64,000 bases of DNA from Actinospica acidithermotolerans (GTDB lineage Bacteria > Actinomycetota > Actinomycetes > Streptomycetales > Catenulisporaceae). The first letter of the stretch is position 1. The number at the start of each line of letters is the position of its first letter. The notes under the pieces are model-generated. The model worked only from the letters and a program-made list of their open reading frames with translations. It was not told where the DNA came from and did no database searches. Of this stretch, positions 9,063 through 30,994 are shown piece by piece. The DNA lies in NCBI RefSeq assembly GCF_018139625.1, contig NZ_JAGSOH010000010.1, positions 1 through 64,000 on the forward strand, given 5' to 3'. The position numbers were made by a program, and so were the translations under genes.

Positions 9063-9812
9063 GTGCACCGAGACGTCAGCGCCGACCGCTTAGGCCTCGG
9101 CGGCCTGCGAGCGGCCGTGCTCGCGATGACGGCCGGGGCGGTCCCCCAACCGCCCCGGCCGCTCAGCGCGGGCGCGGCCGTCAGCTCCCCGCCGGCGCCC
9201 CCCGCCCGCGGCGGCACCGGGCCGAGGCCGGCGGCCCAGCCGGAGCCGCCGCGCCCGGACGCGGAGTCCGCACGCATGCTCGCGCTCGTCGAGCGGGCGC
9301 AGGAGGGCGACGGCGAGGCCTTCGGAAGGCTCTACGACGCGTACGTGGACACCGTCTACCGGTACATCTACTACCGCGTCTCGAACAAGGCGCTGGCCGA
9401 GGACCTCACCAGCGAGACCTTCCTGCGCGCGCTGCGCCGGATCTCCACCTTCACCTGGCAGGGCCGCGACTTCGGCGCCTGGCTGGTGACCATCGCGCGC
9501 AACCTGGTCGCCGACCACTTCAAGTCCTCCCGCCACCGCCTCGAGGTGCCCACCGGCGAGATGCTCGACTCGGACCAGACCGAGGCCAGCCCGGAGGACT
9601 CGGTCCTCGCCTACCTCTCCAACCGCGCCCTGCTCGACGCGGTCAAGCAGCTCAACAGCCAGCAGCAGGAGTGCGTCACGCTGCGCTTCCTGCACGGGCT
9701 CTCGGTCGCCGAGACCGCGCAGATCATGGGCAAGAACGACGGCGCGATCAAGACCCTGCAGTACCGCGCCATCCGCACGCTCGCCCGGCTGCTCCCGGCG
9801 GACCTTCGGTGA
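9063..9812 (+). CDS. bldN: ECF sigma factor BldN (developmental sigma factor)
   Basis: BldN directs transcription of aerial-development genes (chaplins, rodlins, bldM) in Streptomyces. The sigma2/sigma4 core is strikingly conserved: SARMLALVERAQEGD, DTVYRYIYYRV, AEDLTSETFLRALRRI, FTWQGRDFGAWLVTIARN and QQQECVTLRFLHGLSVAETA. About 70 residues precede the core, matching the pro-sequence known for BldN, with a GLGGLRAAVLAM start like its orthologues. GTG 9063 is chosen by that homology, with GGAG 4 nt upstream; the frame is open to 8934. The adjacent downstream gene is its anti-sigma factor. Confidence 0.93.
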   Translation: MHRDVSADRLGLGGLRAAVLAMTAGAVPQPPRPLSAGAAVSSPPAPPARGGTGPRPAAQPEPPRPDAESARMLALVERAQEGDGEAFGRLYDAYVDTVYRYIYYRVSNKALAEDLTSETFLRALRRISTFTWQGRDFGAWLVTIARNLVADHFKSSRHRLEVPTGEMLDSDQTEASPEDSVLAYLSNRALLDAVKQLNSQQQECVTLRFLHGLSVAETAQIMGKNDGAIKTLQYRAIRTLARLLPADLR

Positions 9813-10002: not shown

Positions 10003-10170
10003 GAGTGAAATAGGGGGCCCTGGGACTGTCCCGGGGTGTCCCGGGCACAACCAAACCCGCCCGGCGCGTGTCGAACGCGGTGACGAACCTCCGCGCTCGG
10101 CGATGCGGGCGGGGGCGGTCCGGGCTCGGCCTGGGTCGGAACGGGAGCAGTGGAGGAGGTGGCAGGCGCG

Positions 10171-11463
10171 ATGAACGACCGGCAGCAGGCCGAGCAGTTC
10201 GCGGCGCTGGTGGAAGCACACGCCGCGAGCCGCGCCGACGGCCACACCGGCCAGGCCGGCCGCGCCGGCGACGGGGCGCACGCCGTGGGGCGCGTGAACG
10301 GATCGGCCGTCGGCAGAGGAGCGCACGGAGCGCACGGGGGCGGCGGGGAGGGTGCGCTCGGGTCGCTGGTGGCCCTGGCCGAGCGGGTCTCGACGGCCGC
10401 GTACGCGGTGCCGGGCCCGGGCGTGGATTTCCGGGACGCGCTGCGCGCCCGGCTGGTCGCCGAGGCGCCGGCGCTGGTGGCCGAGGGCGCGGCGGCCGGC
10501 CGCCGCTCCGGCTCCCGGGTGCCCGCGCAACGGGCCGGCCGCGGCCGCGGCGGGGCCCGGCATTCGGCAGACACGAAGGCCGGCGTGTTCACCGGCATCT
10601 CCGCGTCCTGGCGCCGCCGGCTGCTCGCGGCCGGGGTGGGCGTGGCCGTGGCGACGGGCTCGGTCGGCGGCATCGCGATCGCCTCGGCCGGAGCGGTTCC
10701 GGGAGATCCCTTGTACAACGCCAAGAAGATCTTCGAGTCGCTGCAGCTGTCCCTGTCCGGCTCGCCGACCGACCAGGGCCGCGACTACCTGCACCTCGCG
10801 GACGTGCGGCTCGGCGAGATCGACGCGCTGCTGCAGCGCCCGGACGTGGACCAGCCGGGCTCGCAGACCCAGCAACTGCTCAAGGACACGCTCAGCGACC
10901 TGCGCACGATGGTCACCAACGGCGGGGACCTGCTGCTGGCCCAGGTGCAGCAGAACGGCGACCAGACGGCCTTGCACGCGCTCTCCGACTTCCTGCTGAC
11001 GGAGCGTCAGCGCGTCGAGGACCTGAGCTGGCGGCTGCCGGCGGTCCTGCAGTCGCAGCCCCCGCAGATCGTCGCGCTGATGGACCAGTACTCGCGCGAA
11101 CTGCAGGCGGCGGCGCAGAAGGCGGCGAACCACGCGCAGGGCCCGGGCCTCGGCCAGACCGGCGCCGCCGGCCAGCCCGGCGGCGGCGACGCGAGCAGCG
11201 CCGCGCCCTCGGCGACCGGCTCCGCGACGGCCGCCGGCTCCGCGAGCGCGAGCGACACGGCGAGCAAGTCCGCGTCCTCGGCGAAGTCGTCCTCCAGCAC
11301 CTCGGCGAGCGCCAGCCCGAAGTCGAGCTCGACGATAAGCGTCGCCGTCGGGGGCAACGTGCTGCCCTCGATAGGAGTCACCATTCCCAGCGTGCTCGGT
11401 CTGCCCGAGATCGACGTCAATCTCGGCGGAGGTTCGTCGGCGAGCTCCTCGCCGACGAGCTAG
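10171..11463 (+). CDS. rsbN: RsbN-type membrane anti-sigma factor (DUF5667)
   Basis: A single-pass membrane protein of 430 residues. The N-terminal cytoplasmic half begins NDRQQAEQFAALVEAH and contains the FRDALRARLVAEAP segment. The transmembrane span is RRLLAAGVGVAVATGSVGGIAI, followed by the characteristic SAGAVPGDPLYNAKKIFESLQL of the DUF5667 exterior domain. The final third is Ala/Ser/Thr-rich. Orthologues next to bldN sequester BldN at the membrane. ATG 10171 follows GGAGGAGG by 11 nt; GTG 10150 is also in frame. Confidence 0.88.
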   Translation: MNDRQQAEQFAALVEAHAASRADGHTGQAGRAGDGAHAVGRVNGSAVGRGAHGAHGGGGEGALGSLVALAERVSTAAYAVPGPGVDFRDALRARLVAEAPALVAEGAAAGRRSGSRVPAQRAGRGRGGARHSADTKAGVFTGISASWRRRLLAAGVGVAVATGSVGGIAIASAGAVPGDPLYNAKKIFESLQLSLSGSPTDQGRDYLHLADVRLGEIDALLQRPDVDQPGSQTQQLLKDTLSDLRTMVTNGGDLLLAQVQQNGDQTALHALSDFLLTERQRVEDLSWRLPAVLQSQPPQIVALMDQYSRELQAAAQKAANHAQGPGLGQTGAAGQPGGGDASSAAPSATGSATAAGSASASDTASKSASSAKSSSSTSASASPKSSSTISVAVGGNVLPSIGVTIPSVLGLPEIDVNLGGGSSASSSPTS

Positions 11464-22963: not shown

Positions 22964-23728
22964 GTGCCTGAAGTCTCCCTCGATTTCCCGCGTGCCTGGG
23001 TCGAGTTCCCCGATCCGGAGAACGACGAGCAGGTCTACCGCTGCGACCTGACCTGGCTGTGCTCCCGCTGGCAGTGCATCTGGGGCTCCGGATGCCAGGG
23101 GATCAGACCGGGCCGCGCCGACGACGGCTGCTGCACGCTCGGCGCCCACTTCTCCGACCCGGACGACGAGAAGCGGGTCAAGGCGGCGGCGAAGCGGCTG
23201 ACGCCCGAGAGCTGGCAGTTCCACGCCGAGGGCGTGCGGCGCGGCAGGCTGAACGTCATCGAGGTGGACGAGGACGGCGACCGGCAGACTCGCGTGCACG
23301 AGGGCGCCTGCATCTTCCTGAACCGGCCGGGCTTCGCGGGCGGCGCCGGCTGCGCGCTGCACGGTCTCGCGCTGCGCGAGGGCCGCCACCCGCTGGAGAC
23401 GAAGCCGGACGTGTGCTGGCAGCTGCCGATCCGCCGCACCTACGACTGGGTGGAGCGGCCGGACGACAGCAAGGTGCTGGTGATCAGCATCGGCGAGTAC
23501 GACCGGCGCGGCTGGGGCCCCGGCGGCCACGACCTGAACTGGTGGTGCACCGGCAACACCGAGGCGCACACGGCGTTCGAGCCGGTGTTCGTCTCCTACC
23601 GGCCGGAACTCGTCGAGCTGATGGGCCAGGCCGGATACGACGCGCTGGCCGAGCAGTGCGAGGCGTACCTGGCCGCCCGCCGTCCGGTCGCGCCGCATCC
23701 GGCGGACCCGGCCGAACCGGAAGACTGA
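22964..23728 (+). CDS. Cys-rich conserved actinobacterial protein
   Basis: A 254-residue cytoplasmic protein with many cysteines in spaced groups: [44 protein letters not shown] and DVCWQLP. The pattern resembles YkgJ/DUF3109-type metal- or Fe-S-binding proteins. No enzymatic function is known to me. The start is GTG 22964, and it is oriented divergently from ppx. Confidence 0.78.
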
Positions 23729-25336: not shown

Positions 25337-27871
25337 TCAGTGCCTGCGCACCGGCTGCGACGGCGCGGTGGAGGAGGCGCTGCTGTTCGCGCCCGTCGGC
25401 TGGCTGGATGTCGGGGCCTGGGATCCGCTCGCGGTGTCGCCGGCGCCGGTGGCACCCGACTGGGAGCCGGTGGCCGAGGCCGGTGACGACGGTGACGACG
25501 TGGTCGGCGACGAGGTCGTCGGGGCCGGCGTGGTCGGGCTGGTGGGCGCCTTCGTCGGAGTGGTCGGCGAGGTGCTGGTGCCCGCGCTTGCGCCGCCGCC
25601 GGTACTCGCGCCGGTGCCCGAGTCCGTGCTGCTCGCGCTGCTCGCCGGGACGCCGCCGTGCAGCGTGACGACGATGCCGCCCGGACCGAACACGATCTGC
25701 GCGGTCCACTCGCCGCTCGGCGCGGCGTCCGTGGTCGTGGCGGTGACGATCAGGCTCTGTCCGGGGGCCAGGGTGCCGCTGGACTGGCTCAGGGTGAGCC
25801 AGGAAACGGACGGCGCCGCGGTCCAGTTCAGTGCCGCCGAACCGGTGTTGCGGAGCAGGATCTGCACGCTCTGCGGGTCGGCGTCGCGCTGGTTGACGCT
25901 CACATGGAACGCGCCGACCGACGCGGCGGTCGTGCTCGCCACCGCCGTACCGCCGGAACCCGGCAGGCCGACGCTCGTCGCGCCGGACACCTGACCCGAC
26001 GAAGCGGTGGAGGCGGTCGTGACCGAGACCGTGAGGTGGCCGGGGCTGTCGGCGGCGGCGGACGAGGAGGTCGAGCTCGTGCCGACGTTCTCCGTGCCCT
26101 GCGAACCGTCCAGCGCCGACGTGTTCGGGTTCGGACTCGAGCCGATCCCGAGCATCGCCGCCGCGGTGGCCGCGACCGCGCCGATCGCACCCAGCGCCAT
26201 CGCCGAGACGACGGCCTGGCGCATCGGACGCGCCTTGTGCCGAGGCCGCGCCGCGGCGCCCGACTTCACGGCCGGGTCGGTCGGTTTCGGCGCGGCCGGG
26301 GCCGCGGAGGGCGGCCGAGTCGCCGCGGAAGCTGCCGCGGACGTCGCTCTGGATGCCGCCGTGGACGACTCGGCGGTGTACCCAGCGGGCCGCAGACTCT
26401 CGCCGCAGGAAATCCGGGCTTCCCGCCACGTCGATCCGGGCTGCGCGGGACGTGTCGCGAAACGTCCGGACGCCGTCTGCACGAACGTCTGCCCGGGCGG
26501 CGGCCGCCACGGCTCTGCCGCGCCGAACACGTCGCTGCCCGGCGCGGGTGGCAGCACCTTGTCGGCCCAGCTGCCCTTCGCGCGGTACAGGCTGTCGTCG
26601 GGTTCGAGCAACGGCAGTGGTTGCGACTGCTGCCGCTGTGGTGGCCGCTGGGCCGACTGCGGTGATGGCTGCTGCTGGTGTGGCGGCGCGGGCGGACGCG
26701 GCGGCATGCCGGTCTTCGCGGACGTCGCCTGCGCAGTGCCCGCCTTCGCCGACTGCGGACGCTGGTGGTGAGCCGCCGCGCGACCGCTCGGTCCCGGCTG
26801 CCGGCGCCTCGGCACCCGCCCGGTTCCGGCGGACACGGCGCCGGACCCGCCGCCGCTGCTGCCGCCGCTGCCGCTGGTACCACTGCCGGGGCTGCTGCCG
26901 GTACCGTTGCCGTTGCCGCTGGTCGGGGCCTGGGCGGAGGTCTCCAGACGGCCCGGGAAGCCCTCGGGGCCGAACTTGCCGCAGCGCCTGCCCAGCGCGA
27001 CGAGGTCGACGCCCGCGGCGGCCGCCGCGTCCGCGTCCGCGAGCTCGGCAAGCAGCATGTCGCGCAGCGCGCGCGGCGCCGCCACGAACGGCAGGATCGT
27101 CGGCGCGGACGGCGTGCCGATGACCGTGTGCAGGTAGTGCTGGCAGCGCGAGCAGCGGTCCACGTGGTCGATCAGCGGCGCGCGCAACGTGCCGTTGAGC
27201 TTGCCGCTCCACCCGAAGGTCAGCTCGGCGAGCTGGGCGCAGTTGTCGCGACCCGAACCGGCCACGGCGGCGGCGGCGAGCGAGCGCTCGAGCTCGCGCC
27301 ACGCGTCGGCCAGCAGTCCGAATCCGTGAGCGGGCGCCAGGCCCGCGGCCTCGCGCAGCCCGAGCACGAGCGCCAGCCCCCGGCTGTCGAGCCCGTGACG
27401 GATGGTCAGCTCAAGCACCTCGCGATGGGAGGGGGCGAGCCCCTCGGCCTCCGGCCAGGCGAGCGACTGGAACTCGGCACGCCGCAGGTTGCCCTCCAGC
27501 TGGAGCAGCGACGCCGTGACCCCCGACTCGCCGAGCGAGTCCGACTTCGGCCGCAGCCGGCGCGACGCAGGCGCCGGCGCCGAGGCGCCCTCCTTGCCGC
27601 GCAGCCGGCACTCGCGGCGCAGCAGCGCGTAGAGCCACGGCTGAATCTGCTCCGGCTGCTGGAGGTTCGTGTGATTGCGGTCCGCCGCGACGAAGGCGCA
27701 GTAGACGGCGTCGGCCGCGGCATCGTGGTCGTGCAGGTACCAGAGCGAGTAGGTGTGTAGTCCGTCGGCGTAGGCGTCGTAAGCGGCAGCCCGTCCCCAG
27801 CCGTCGCCCGCAGTACCTCCGAGCACGGCTCCGGCGACGGCGTGCCCCCCGCCCGAAGATTCAGCATTCAC
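25337..27871 (-). CDS. Sigma-70-like / zinc anti-sigma / transmembrane / BACON-domain chimeric protein
   Basis: About 844 residues. Residues 30-90 look like sigma region 2 (AYDAYADGLHTYSLWYLHDH, then PWLYALLRREC), and 145-205 like region 4. An anti-sigma zinc motif HX3CX2C follows at H236, C240 and C243 (DHVDRCSRCQHY). A Gly/Pro/Gln-rich linker leads to one membrane span (AVVSAMALGAIGAVAATAAA). Outside the cell are a BACON-like beta domain (NTGSAALNWTAAPSVSWLTL) and a Ser/Thr/Ala tail. The start is uncertain: GTG 27871 is proposed, and the frame is open to 27928. No function is established; a tethered sigma/anti-sigma fusion is inferred. Confidence 0.72.
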   Translation of the reverse strand: MNAESSGGGHAVAGAVLGGTAGDGWGRAAAYDAYADGLHTYSLWYLHDHDAAADAVYCAFVAADRNHTNLQQPEQIQPWLYALLRRECRLRGKEGASAPAPASRRLRPKSDSLGESGVTASLLQLEGNLRRAEFQSLAWPEAEGLAPSHREVLELTIRHGLDSRGLALVLGLREAAGLAPAHGFGLLADAWRELERSLAAAAVAGSGRDNCAQLAELTFGWSGKLNGTLRAPLIDHVDRCSRCQHYLHTVIGTPSAPTILPFVAAPRALRDMLLAELADADAAAAAGVDLVALGRRCGKFGPEGFPGRLETSAQAPTSGNGNGTGSSPGSGTSGSGGSSGGGSGAVSAGTGRVPRRRQPGPSGRAAAHHQRPQSAKAGTAQATSAKTGMPPRPPAPPHQQQPSPQSAQRPPQRQQSQPLPLLEPDDSLYRAKGSWADKVLPPAPGSDVFGAAEPWRPPPGQTFVQTASGRFATRPAQPGSTWREARISCGESLRPAGYTAESSTAASRATSAAASAATRPPSAAPAAPKPTDPAVKSGAAARPRHKARPMRQAVVSAMALGAIGAVAATAAAMLGIGSSPNPNTSALDGSQGTENVGTSSTSSSAAADSPGHLTVSVTTASTASSGQVSGATSVGLPGSGGTAVASTTAASVGAFHVSVNQRDADPQSVQILLRNTGSAALNWTAAPSVSWLTLSQSSGTLAPGQSLIVTATTTDAAPSGEWTAQIVFGPGGIVVTLHGGVPASSASSTDSGTGASTGGGASAGTSTSPTTPTKAPTSPTTPAPTTSSPTTSSPSSPASATGSQSGATGAGDTASGSQAPTSSQPTGANSSASSTAPSQPVRRH

Positions 27872-27924
27872 CCGGACGACGCTAGGCGCGCGACCTCGGC
27901 ATACGTAGCCGTATTTACATCCAA

Positions 27925-27973
27925 TCACCCTGACGGGTGAGGACGGCCGAACCGTACCTCACCCGTTCGGGTG
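27925..27973. promoter_or_regulatory. Pair of GGGTG inverted repeats between the two sigma-like genes
   Basis: TCACCC-TGAC-GGGTGA (27925-27940) and CACCCG-TT-CGGGTG (27960-27973) share arms and lie in the 141-bp gap. They may be operators for the gene starting at 27871 or weak terminators for the gene ending at 28013. Confidence 0.4.
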
Positions 27974-28012
27974 GATAGAGATAATGCGGCGTCATGGCCG
28001 CGAATGGCCTGA

Positions 28013-29329
28013 TCAGTTGCAGGACTTGGAGGTGACAGGCGACGCGGACGTCGTAGTCGTCGGGGACATGGACGTCGTCGTGTATACCGGCGACGCGCTG
28101 TCCGAAGGCGTGACCGTGATGGTGACCGGCACCGATGTCTTCACTGTCACCGTCTTGGTGGTCGTCACGGTGACGCACGTTGTCGTCTTCGTCGTCGGAG
28201 CTGCCGCGGTCGTTGCCGTCGTCTGCTGCCCCGCTGCCGTCGTCACCGTCGTCGCCGCCGCGCTGCTCGTCGTCGCCGAGGCCGAGGCGCTCGCCGACGT
28301 GCTCGCGCTGCCGCTCGCGCTCGACGCCGCCAGCTCCGCGTACGTCGACGCCGTGCTCACCGAGCCGCCGGTCGACGACGAGGTGGTCGTGACGTCCGCG
28401 GATGCCGCCGGGTGGTCGTTCGTCATGTACATCACCAGCGCCACCGCGCAGGCCGCGGCGGCCACCAGGCCCGCGCCGGGCAGCATCCACTTCTTGACCG
28501 CGGAGAAGCCGCCGCCGCCGCGGCCGCCGCCGGTCGGGAAGCCGTTCGCGTCGAACTTGCCGGAGCGCTCCACGATCTGCTCCGCGAACGCGGCGCCCGC
28601 CGGGTCGCGCAGCGCCTCGAGCACCCGCGAGCGGACGCCGGGCGGCATGAACGCGTGCGGCAGCTCCTCGAACAGCCGCAGCGGACGGCGGTTGCGGATC
28701 GCGTCGCCGCAGACCGCGCAGCCCTCGACGTGCTTGCTCGCCGCGCGCAGCCAGACGGGGACGCCCTTGCCGTCGATCTCGTCGAACTGCCGGCCGGCCT
28801 GCGCCGCCTCGTCGCAGCGCGGCTCGCCGGTGCGGGCCGCGAGCACGACCAGCAGCGCGGTCTCCAGGTCGGCCTGCGCCCGCGTCACCTCGACGGCTAT
28901 CCCCGACTCGTCGCGGCCGAGCACCAGCGCGAGGTCGTTGTCCACCAGGCGGTGCCGGAAGGCCAGGTCGAGCAGCTCGCGCTCCTCCGGCTCCAGCATC
29001 GAGTAGACGTCGAGCGCCAGCCGCGCCAGCCGGTCGCCGCGGGCCGCGCTGGCGGCGTCGGCGGGGGCGTCGTCGCTGATGCCGACGCGGTCGCACTCGG
29101 CCCGCGCCAGTGCGTACAGCCAGGCGCCGAACTCCTCCGGCTCGGCCAGCTCGCGGATCCGGTTGACGGCCACGATGAAGGTGTCGCGCAGTGCGTCGGC
29201 GGCCAGCCGGGGGTCGGCCAGCAACTCGTGGCAGTACGCGTACAGCCTGGTGCCGTAAACGTCATAGACCTGCCCCGCCGCCAGCCGGTCGCCGGCCCGC
29301 AGGGTGGTCACCAAATCCCGGTCGCTCAC
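28013..29329 (-). CDS. Sigma-70-like / zinc anti-sigma / transmembrane protein with Ser/Thr-rich exterior
   Basis: About 438 residues and the same plan as its neighbour. Region-2-like residues run about 1-80 (AGQVYDVYGTRLYAYCHELL, GAWLYALARAECDRV), and region-4-like 110-165 (LEPEERELLDLAFRHRLVDN). The zinc anti-sigma motif HX3CX2C is H200, C204 and C207 (SKHVEGCAVCGDA). The membrane span is KWMLPGAGLVAAAACAVALV. The exterior is about 135 residues of Ser, Thr, Ala and Val, likely O-glycosylated or wall-spanning. GTG 29329 is chosen where the sigma homology begins. Function unknown. Confidence 0.76.
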   Translation of the reverse strand: MSDRDLVTTLRAGDRLAAGQVYDVYGTRLYAYCHELLADPRLAADALRDTFIVAVNRIRELAEPEEFGAWLYALARAECDRVGISDDAPADAASAARGDRLARLALDVYSMLEPEERELLDLAFRHRLVDNDLALVLGRDESGIAVEVTRAQADLETALLVVLAARTGEPRCDEAAQAGRQFDEIDGKGVPVWLRAASKHVEGCAVCGDAIRNRRPLRLFEELPHAFMPPGVRSRVLEALRDPAGAAFAEQIVERSGKFDANGFPTGGGRGGGGFSAVKKWMLPGAGLVAAAACAVALVMYMTNDHPAASADVTTTSSSTGGSVSTASTYAELAASSASGSASTSASASASATTSSAAATTVTTAAGQQTTATTAAAPTTKTTTCVTVTTTKTVTVKTSVPVTITVTPSDSASPVYTTTSMSPTTTTSASPVTSKSCN

Positions 29330-29608: not shown

Positions 29609-30994
29609 ATGGCGAACTCGACGAAACCCGCTCGCCCGGGCTACCGCTGCGCCGAATGCGGCGTGACCACGGCGAAGTGGCTCGGCCGCTGCCCGGAGTG
29701 CCAGGCCTGGGGCACTCTCGAGGAGCTCGGCGTGCCCAAGCCGCGCACGGTGAAGGCGGGACCGGTCTCCGCGCCGGCCCGGCCGATCGGGCAGGTCGAC
29801 GCCACGATGGCCAAGGCCCGCGCGACCGGCGTGGACGAGCTCGACCGGGTGCTCGGCGGCGGCCTGGTGCCGGGCGCCGTGGTGCTGCTCGCCGGGGAGC
29901 CCGGCGTCGGCAAGTCGACGCTGCTGCTGGAGGTGGCCGCCGCGTGCGCCGGGGGCGAGCGGCCCGCCCTCGTCGTCACCGGCGAGGAGTCGGCGGCCCA
30001 GGTCCGCTCGCGCGCGGACCGCATCGGCGCCCTGCACGAGGACCTCTACCTCGCCGCGGAGACCGACCTGTCCGCTGTACTCGGCCAGATCGAGGCGGTC
30101 GAGCCGGGCCTGCTGATCCTGGACTCGGTGCAGACGGTCGCCTCGGCCGAGGTGGACGGCGTGCCCGGCGGCATCACCCAGGTGCGCGAGGTGTGCGCGG
30201 CGCTGATCCGGATCGCCAAGGAGAAGGACCTCGCCACCATCCTGGTCGGCCACGTCACCAAGGACGGCAACATCGCCGGCCCGCGCGTGCTCGAGCACCT
30301 GGTCGACGTGGTCCTGCAGTTCGAGGGCGACCGGCACTCCACCCTGCGCATCGTGCGCGCGGTGAAGAACCGCTACGGCCCGACCGACGAGATCGGCTGC
30401 TTCGAGATGCGGGAGTCGGGGATCAAGGGCCTGCCCGATCCCTCAGGCCTCTTCCTGTCGCAGCGCTCCGACCCGGTCCCCGGCACCTGCGTGACCGTCA
30501 CCCTGGAGGGCCGCCGGCCGCTGGTCTGCGAGGTGCAGGCGCTGGTCGCGCCCTCTCCGCTGCCGCAGCCGCGGCGGGCCACGTCAGGGCTCGACGGCTC
30601 CCGGGTGTCCATGGTGATGGCCGTGCTGGAGCGGCGCGGCCGGGTGCCGCTGGCCAAGAACGACGTGTTCGCGGCGACGGTCGGCGGGGTGCGGCTGGTC
30701 GACCCGGCCGCGGATCTGGCCGTGGCGCTGGCGATGACGACCGCCGCGATCGACGCGCCGCTGCCGCCGACGGTCGCGGCCTTCGGCGAGCTCGGCCTCG
30801 CCGGGGAGGTGCGGCCGGTCGCCGGTCTGGCCCGGCGGCTGTCCGAGGCGGCCAGGCTCGGCTTCAAGACGGCGCTCGTGCCGCGGCCGGCGCCGGGCGG
30901 CGAGACGGTCAGGCCGCCCGCCGGGATGCGCGTCGTCGAGGTCTCCGACATCGCCGACTCGCTTGCCGCCCTGCATACGATGATCAGCCGCTAG
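29609..30994 (+). CDS. radA: DNA repair ATPase RadA
   Basis: RadA is a RecA-like ATPase that drives branch migration during recombinational repair. The product has 461 residues. The N-terminal four-cysteine zinc finger is YRCAECG...RCPECQAWG (C14, C17, C28, C31). Walker [10 protein letters not shown] is at 96-104, the KNRYG motif follows, and the Lon-like C-terminal domain is complete. No clear ribosome site precedes ATG 29609; TATACC at 29593-29598 could give a very short leader. disA lies downstream on the same strand, as is typical. Confidence 0.96.

What the first reader, a model, noticed from the sequence alone, without database searches (positions are those of the whole stretch)
25337..29329. 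Two tandem sigma-70-like / zinc anti-sigma / transmembrane fusion proteins
Both genes encode, in one polypeptide, a sigma region 2/4-like module, an intact HX3CX2C zinc anti-sigma motif (H236/C240/C243 and H200/C204/C207), one membrane span and a long exterior. One exterior has a BACON-like domain and the other a Ser/Thr-rich stalk. A sigma domain fused to its own anti-sigma and tethered to the membrane would be a one-piece transmembrane transcription switch, freed perhaps by proteolysis. Alternatively the sigma part is a degenerate scaffold. I do not know a functional description of this architecture.
Basis: partly seen in the sequence, partly recalled or inferred. Interest (0 to 1): 0.78.

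Follow-up and report, generated by a model that had tools for sequence, protein, structure and literature searches.

The report
Tandem membrane-anchored sigma-mimic/anti-sigma fusions beside radA
Two neighbouring genes each encode, in one protein, an eroded copy of a transcription-initiation (sigma) factor, a domain of the kind that normally blocks such factors, a membrane span and an outside part; the layout is already known, but here the sigma half has lost the residues that read promoters while the gene is kept in the same place throughout the Streptomyces order, so it probably works as a regulator of regulators rather than as a sigma factor.

Summary
Window 28013-29329(-) and 25337-27871(-) are tandem paralogues, each with sigma2-linker-sigma4, a class I zinc anti-sigma domain (HX3CX2C), one membrane span and a long exterior (BACON in one, Ser/Thr-rich stalk in the other). 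Sigma ancestry is firm: profile-profile E 6e-11 and 3e-6 against ordinary ECFs, about 1e-37 against intact one-piece fusions. The predicted fold of the stalk protein (pLDDT 83) matches SigW as held by RsiW.

The layout is not new: ECF48/52/53 and IutY are published sigma+anti-sigma+membrane fusions. These genes form a different clade from NPCBM-type (ECF52-like) proteins. The clade occupies one locus, divergent from radA-disA: two genes in Catenulisporaceae, one BACON-type gene in Streptomyces.

New here: along this clade the sigma half erodes (Pfam region 2 score 37-50 bits in intact relatives, 25 and 12 in the window, none in Streptomyces), and the sigma4 recognition segment is net negative in all 44 sequences, versus zero or positive in all 27 controls. 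Purifying selection continues (dN/dS 0.02-0.32).

Best reading: a membrane-tethered sigma mimic bound to its own anti-sigma domain, a PhyR-like logic in cis, rather than a promoter-reading switch. That step is inferred, not shown.

The parts
28013..29329 (-). ST gene (clade A): sigma-like module + zinc anti-sigma domain + membrane span + Ser/Thr-rich exterior, 438 aa
29084..29314 (-). sigma2-like domain of ST protein (Sigma70_r2 25.0 bits; Q-E of region 2.2 replaced by R-D)
28832..29002 (-). sigma4-like domain of ST protein; recognition segment without the usual basic residues (clade A mean net charge -5.8)
28535..28834 (-). class I anti-sigma domain of ST protein with H200-C204-C207 (28709-28732) and terminal FDxxGFP motif (GFP at 28535-28543)
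28430..28486 (-). membrane span of ST protein (residues 282-300)
28016..28429 (-). Ser/Thr/Pro-rich exterior of ST protein (138 aa, 55% S+T+P)
25337..27871 (-). BACON gene (clade B): sigma-like module + zinc anti-sigma domain + long cytosolic linker + membrane span + BACON exterior, 844 aa
27605..27781 (-). sigma2-like domain of BACON protein (Sigma70_r2 11.6 bits, below cut-off; region 2.2 Q-E replaced by Y-C)
27281..27445 (-). sigma4-like domain of BACON protein (approximate limits); recognition segment net negative in clade B, with a small insertion
27143..27166 (-). HX3CX2C of BACON protein's anti-sigma domain (H236, C240, C243)
26954..26962 (-). GFP motif closing the cytosolic module of the BACON protein
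26144..26200 (-). membrane span of BACON protein (residues 558-576)
25733..25900 (-). BACON_2 domain (36.7 bits, cut-off 25) in the exterior
29609..30994 (+). radA, divergent neighbour of the pair in every order-level locus read that was not cut by a contig end
31032..32216 (+). disA (diadenylate cyclase), conserved next to radA in Catenulisporaceae loci

Best explanation
Shown here: the two proteins descend from an actinobacterial line of one-piece proteins (ECF sigma + class I anti-sigma domain + membrane span + BACON/Ig-like exterior). The sigma half has lost promoter-reading features, while the fold, the anti-sigma domain with its helix 4 and the membrane anchoring are maintained under purifying selection. 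Inferred: the sigma half now works as a sigma mimic docked in cis on its own anti-sigma domain. The pair is a membrane-tethered partner switch: a change sensed by the exterior (wall polysaccharide, mechanical state or proteolysis) alters the docking and frees either the anti-sigma domain to hold a real ECF sigma factor, or the mimic to titrate another anti-sigma factor, in the manner of PhyR. It does not itself direct RNA polymerase to promoters.
For: Sigma ancestry: hhalign against stand-alone ECFs 97.1% (E 6e-11) for the ST clade, 88.1% (3e-6) for the BACON clade, 94.1% (1e-7) for Streptomyces; shuffled controls at or below 0.5%. Fold: ST module pLDDT 83, pTM 0.83; best PDB matches SigW in the RsiW complex (TM 0.74 by target) and CnrH in the CnrY complex (0.75), i.e. 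anti-sigma-held conformations; PhyR/NepR entries further down. BACON module weaker, pLDDT 68, SigW 0.61. Erosion: Sigma70_r2 36.7-50.5 bits in the intact relatives scanned and L023, 21-25 in clade A, about 12 in clade B, none in the three Streptomyces proteins scanned. Sigma4.2 segment net charge: clade A -5.8, clade B -3.1, Streptomyces -2.6, Streptosporangiales -1.8, against +1.5 (other one-piece), +2.0 (NPCBM type), +3.3 (stand-alone ECFs), ranges not overlapping. Maintained: dN/dS 0.02-0.32 over the module; LPxxxxPxxxR of the anti-sigma helix 4 region and the terminal GFP invariant across 22 sequences. Loss is confined to one starred clade. PhyR as a sigma mimic: PMC4598750; the dual sigma2/sigma4 interface of class I anti-sigma domains: PMC7406223.
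Against: No partner sigma or anti-sigma factor was identified. No data on RNA polymerase binding or expression. Some canonical residues persist in the window (the D of region 2.2, the WLY of region 2.3, and in the ST protein the R of the last sigma4 helix), so residual core binding is not excluded. Loss of the region 2.2 Q alone is not diagnostic: the genome's own BldN-like ECF and the NPCBM type also lack it. PhyR-like function is an analogy.
Confidence: 0.5

Rival explanations
1. An active one-piece sigma switch: proteolysis frees the sigma half, which still directs RNA polymerase, perhaps to unusual promoters.
For: Same layout as IutY, where proteolytic release is shown, and SCO4117, where release is proposed. 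ST protein passes Sigma70_r2 and folds as sigma2-sigma4. The region 2.2 D and the WLY of region 2.3 are kept in the window; region 2.3-2.4 charge of the BACON clade and Streptomyces is near normal.
Against: Sigma4.2 is acidic in every member of the clade; no Sigma70_r4 match in the window; region 2.4 of clade A has lost most of its basic residues (2.0 K+R against 5.4 in ECFs); the Streptomyces orthologues scanned give no Sigma70_r2 match at all yet the gene is retained.
Confidence: 0.22
2. A membrane scaffold in which the sigma/anti-sigma module is a stable structural knob and the exterior does the work (wall binding or adhesion).
For: Exterior BACON or Ser/Thr/Pro-rich stalk. Zinc ligands lost in the Catenulispora ST orthologue. 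Very long, variable cytosolic linker in clade B.
Against: The cytosolic module is conserved (about 60-85% pairwise identity over most segments within clades; dN/dS 0.02-0.32) and its interface-side motifs are invariant, more than an inert knob needs.
Confidence: 0.15
3. A membrane anchor for RNA polymerase or an RNA polymerase inhibitor: sigma2 still contacts the beta' clamp but cannot read promoters.
For: Region 2.1-2.2 is the best conserved segment, or tied for it, in clades A and B (85% and 83% pairwise).
Against: Region 2.2 D is lost in Catenulispora clade B, in Streptomyces and in Streptosporangiales relatives; conservation there is equally explained by the fused anti-sigma helix 4, which covers the same surface in class I complexes (PMC7406223).
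Confidence: 0.1

Closest known systems
ECF52 sigma factors (SCO4117 of Streptomyces coelicolor), and predicted groups ECF48 and ECF53
   Same: One polypeptide: ECF sigma, zinc finger anti-sigma domain, membrane helix, Pro-rich or low-complexity exterior, sugar-binding or enzymatic exterior domain; actinobacterial; release by proteolysis has been proposed (PMC5826349, PMC8999054, PMC10766802).
   Different: The window proteins lie in another clade in the tree, carry BACON or a plain stalk instead of NPCBM, and have an eroded, acidic sigma4. ECF48 and ECF53 were not testable because no group models are held.
IutY of Pseudomonas putida (ECF243)
   Same: Sigma fused to its membrane anti-sigma; proteolytic release shown (PMC8999054).
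   Different: Proteobacterial iron-uptake system; its sigma half is a working sigma factor.
PhyR sigma-like domain / NepR (Alphaproteobacteria)
   Same: An ECF-derived sigma2-sigma4 module used as a mimic that binds an anti-sigma factor instead of promoters (PMC4598750); PhyR and NepR entries appear in the fold search.
   Different: PhyR is soluble and controlled by a receiver domain; NepR is unrelated to the zinc anti-sigma domain; no common ancestry of the mimic is claimed.
SigW/RsiW of Bacillus subtilis (PDB 5wuq)
   Same: Closest solved fold for the ST module and among the best for the BACON module; RsiW is a zinc-motif anti-sigma domain wrapped around both sigma domains (PMC7406223).
   Different: Two separate proteins; SigW is a working sigma factor.
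S. venezuelae RS15920, listed only as 'r4, BACON' (PMC11256431, table 3)
   Same: Its domain listing matches the Streptomyces single-copy gene of this locus.
   Different: No function known there, only expression changes in ECF mutants; identity with the radA-locus gene not verified here.

Membership tests
Working ECF sigma factor | sigma2 and sigma4 domains recognisable by curated models | tested here: not met
   ST protein passes Sigma70_r2 only just (25.0 against 24); BACON protein fails (11.6); neither matches region 4. Homology is clear only by profile-profile comparison.
Working ECF sigma factor | basic -35 recognition segment in sigma4.2 | tested here: not met
   Net charge negative in all 44 clade members, zero or positive in all 27 comparison proteins.
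Working ECF sigma factor | binds core RNA polymerase and a promoter | not testable with these tools
   Needs biochemistry.
Class I (zinc) anti-sigma domain | three-helix bundle plus helix 4, HX3CX2C in zinc-binding members | tested here: met
   Motif in both proteins, all-helical module after sigma4. Catenulispora ST orthologues lack CX2C, which class I domains tolerate (PMC7406223). Pfam zf-HC2 itself does not match the window proteins.
ECF52 | sigma + zinc finger + membrane helix + Pro-rich extension + carbohydrate-binding domain | tested here: inconclusive
   General layout matches; BACON is only a putative carbohydrate binder, and the ST protein has no such domain.
ECF52 | groups with SCO4117-type proteins in a tree | tested here: not met
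   Two NPCBM-bearing fusions from the Streptomyces-type genomes sit outside the window's family (split 97/91). Only two such sequences sampled, on a long branch.
ECF48 / ECF53 | match to the group model | not testable with these tools
   The classification paper and its models are not held.
PhyR-type sigma mimic | sigma-like fold that has lost promoter contacts | tested here: met
PhyR-type sigma mimic | receiver domain and NepR partner | tested here: not met
   No receiver domain; the fused anti-sigma domain is the zinc class, not NepR. Not filed as a PhyR family member.
PhyR-type sigma mimic | binds an anti-sigma factor | not testable with these tools
   Needs an interaction assay.

The most novel reading that the evidence does not exclude
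An order-wide family of membrane-anchored sigma mimics fused in cis to an anti-sigma domain: a self-plugged anti-sigma factor. It would be a case of sigma mimicry outside the alphaproteobacterial PhyR system, evolved by decay of an active one-piece sigma switch, and kept as a tandem pair in Catenulisporaceae.
Probability: 0.38. Interest if true: 0.82.

Novelty: new variant of a known kind. Interest (0 to 1): 0.57.

Why it matters
One-piece sigma/anti-sigma membrane fusions are known mostly from bioinformatics, and only IutY has a shown mechanism. This locus gives a natural series, from intact one-piece sigma proteins in other actinobacteria to half-eroded pairs in Catenulisporaceae and strongly eroded single genes in Streptomyces. 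That makes it possible to ask directly what remains useful once promoter reading is lost. The gene sits beside radA in essentially every Streptomyces-type locus read, so it can be deleted and tested in standard laboratory strains.

Tried and rejected
Chance resemblance to sigma factors: rejected by profile-profile comparison with shuffled controls and fold prediction. Pseudogenes: rejected by open frames in the relatives and dN/dS 0.02-0.32. ECF52 membership: not supported by the tree. Zinc as essential: rejected, because Catenulispora ST orthologues lost the CX2C. The GFP motif as a membrane-protease site: unlikely, because it stays with the anti-sigma module when a linker of 130-300 residues separates that from the membrane. 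Region 2.2 Q as a marker of activity: dropped, since presumably working ECFs also lack it. Solved-structure sequence search of the BACON protein gave only a low-complexity match.
Full report
Observation. The two genes lie on the minus strand at 28013-29329 (ST protein, 438 aa) and 25337-27871 (BACON protein, 844 aa). Each protein has one strong hydrophobic span. The ST exterior is 138 aa with 55% Ser/Thr/Pro; the BACON exterior is 268 aa. Pfam places BACON_2 at 36.7 bits in the long protein and Sigma70_r2 at 25.0 bits (cut-off 24) in the short one. The long one has Sigma70_r2 at only 11.6 bits, and neither matches region 4 or zf-HC2. The two modules align over their whole length and are paralogues (35% identity; about 30% in the larger alignment).

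Is it really sigma? Yes by descent. Profile-profile comparison with stand-alone ECF sigma factors of the same genome gives 97.1% (E 6e-11) for the ST clade, 88.1% (3e-6) for the BACON clade and 94.1% (1e-7) for Streptomyces orthologues, while column-shuffled controls give at most 0.5%. phmmer of the ST protein finds BldN (6dxo, 3e-9) and SigW (9e-5) among solved structures. AlphaFold2 gives the ST module pLDDT 83 and pTM 0.83, with helices in the order sigma2-sigma4-anti-sigma. Its best PDB matches are SigW held by RsiW and CnrH held by CnrY, probability 1.00 and TM-score about 0.74-0.75 by target length, although Foldseek E-values are only about 2e-3 to 8e-3. The BACON module is predicted less well (pLDDT 68; SigW 0.61).

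Surroundings. The pair is divergent from radA (29609) and disA (31032). Actinospica, Actinocrinis and six Catenulispora-type genomes carry the same tandem pair beside radA-disA. All 119 genomes sampled from the order have a profile match at E 1e-12 or better; for a few of them that best match may be to another one-piece fusion or an ECF rather than to this gene. In the 22 loci of that genus read there is one BACON-type gene; 21 have RadA next to it, and the remaining one is cut by a contig end. G247, from another family, has both genes next to RadA. Single relatives occur in Actinomadura, Actinoallomurus and Nonomuraea; in the first two no RadA lies within the flanks held.

Evolution. A phylum-wide profile search found proteins of the same layout in many other actinobacterial genomes, several with BACON- or HYDIN-Ig-like exteriors and several with the same GFP motif before the membrane. 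In the tree these intact proteins lie outside a clade of 33 sequences (100/94): ST clade plus Streptosporangiales (90/68, not firm), and BACON clade plus Streptomyces (100/95). If the root is right, the ST/BACON duplication is older than the split of Streptomyces from Catenulisporaceae, and Streptomyces lost the ST copy. Two NPCBM-bearing proteins from the Streptomyces-type genomes, matching the description of SCO4117/ECF52, fall outside the whole family (97/91).

Erosion of the sigma half. Sigma70_r2 scores fall from 36.7-50.5 bits in the intact relatives scanned (L026 and the Thermomicrobium protein score higher still) to 21-25 in the ST clade, about 12 in the BACON clade and no match in the Streptomyces proteins scanned. 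The sigma4.2 segment is net negative in all 44 sequences of the four groups of this clade (means -5.8, -3.1, -2.6, -1.8) and zero or positive in all 27 others (means +1.5, +2.0, +3.3). Because this is one clade, it counts as one or few evolutionary events; the computed p-value of 3e-12 treats rows as independent and should not be read as such. Region 2.3-2.4 charge is reduced only in the ST clade. The module is under purifying selection: dN/dS 0.02-0.32 in 13 pairs. Invariant positions across 22 sequences include L-P-x4-P-x3-R in the anti-sigma helix 4 region and the closing GFP.

What is known. Fusions of sigma, zinc anti-sigma domain and membrane helix are described as ECF48, ECF52 and ECF53; IutY is the only one with proteolytic activation shown (PMC8999054). 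SCO4117 controls development, and release by proteolysis is proposed (PMC5826349). Some ECF52/53 proteins are predicted to carry glycosyl hydrolase or carbohydrate-binding domains (PMC10766802). This genome has three such intact-looking fusions elsewhere, one with a GH catalytic core, one with a CAP domain and one with an unnamed exterior. S. venezuelae RS15920 is tabulated as 'r4, BACON' without a function (PMC11256431). Nothing found describes the eroded radA-locus clade, but the main ECF classification paper was not available, so it may have been grouped there.

Mechanism. Shown: ancestry, layout, erosion, conservation. Inferred: that the sigma half docks on its own anti-sigma domain. Support for this is the predicted fold, which resembles anti-sigma-held sigma factors, and the retained helix 4, which in class I complexes covers the RNA polymerase surface of sigma2 (PMC7406223). 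The closest working analogy is PhyR, an ECF-derived mimic that binds an anti-sigma factor instead of promoters (PMC4598750). Which partner is released to act in trans, and what the exterior senses, is unknown. I put about one half on a mimic/partner-switch role, a little over one fifth on an active one-piece sigma factor, and the rest on scaffold or polymerase-anchoring roles.

Noticed in passing
L027:1441-3369 (same genome, C373): One-piece sigma + HX3CX2C + membrane span fused to a Glyco_hydro_cc catalytic domain (169.7 bits), with intact DVVQE in region 2.2: an enzyme on the outside of an apparently working one-piece sigma factor.
   Followed up: partly
L026:1012-2700 (same genome, C88) and L023:1462-3858 (C188): Two more intact one-piece sigma/anti-sigma/membrane fusions: one with a CAP (cysteine-rich secretory protein) exterior, one with a large exterior that no Pfam model matches.
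   Followed up: partly
window 26954-26962 and 28535-28543: A G[FY]P motif closes the cytosolic module in every radA-clade member and in several intact relatives. It is usually about 19 residues before the membrane span but stays with the module when a long linker intervenes. Function unknown.
   Followed up: partly
window 9285-9803 (+) and 10150-11463 (+): An ECF sigma factor resembling BldN is followed by a DUF5667 protein, possibly a bldN-rsbN-like pair, about 16 kb from the finding.
   Followed up: no
window 22964-23728 (+): Cysteine-rich protein with no Pfam match, conserved (66-86% identity) close to the BACON gene from Streptomyces-type genomes to Actinospica.
   Followed up: partly
L011-L016, ST orthologues: Catenulispora orthologues of the ST gene lost the CX2C zinc ligands while otherwise evolving slowly, so zinc is dispensable in that branch.
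   Followed up: yes
L036:1-1107 and L036:1366-2757 (G075): Another tandem pair of one-piece sigma/anti-sigma fusions, with intact sigma residues, in a different actinobacterial family.
   Followed up: no
L029:3614-4921 (Thermomicrobium roseum plasmid, WP_012642865.1): Outside Actinomycetota: a protein annotated as sigma factor with both sigma domains over cut-off and a weak zf-HC2 match, similar to the BACON protein's module.
   Followed up: no
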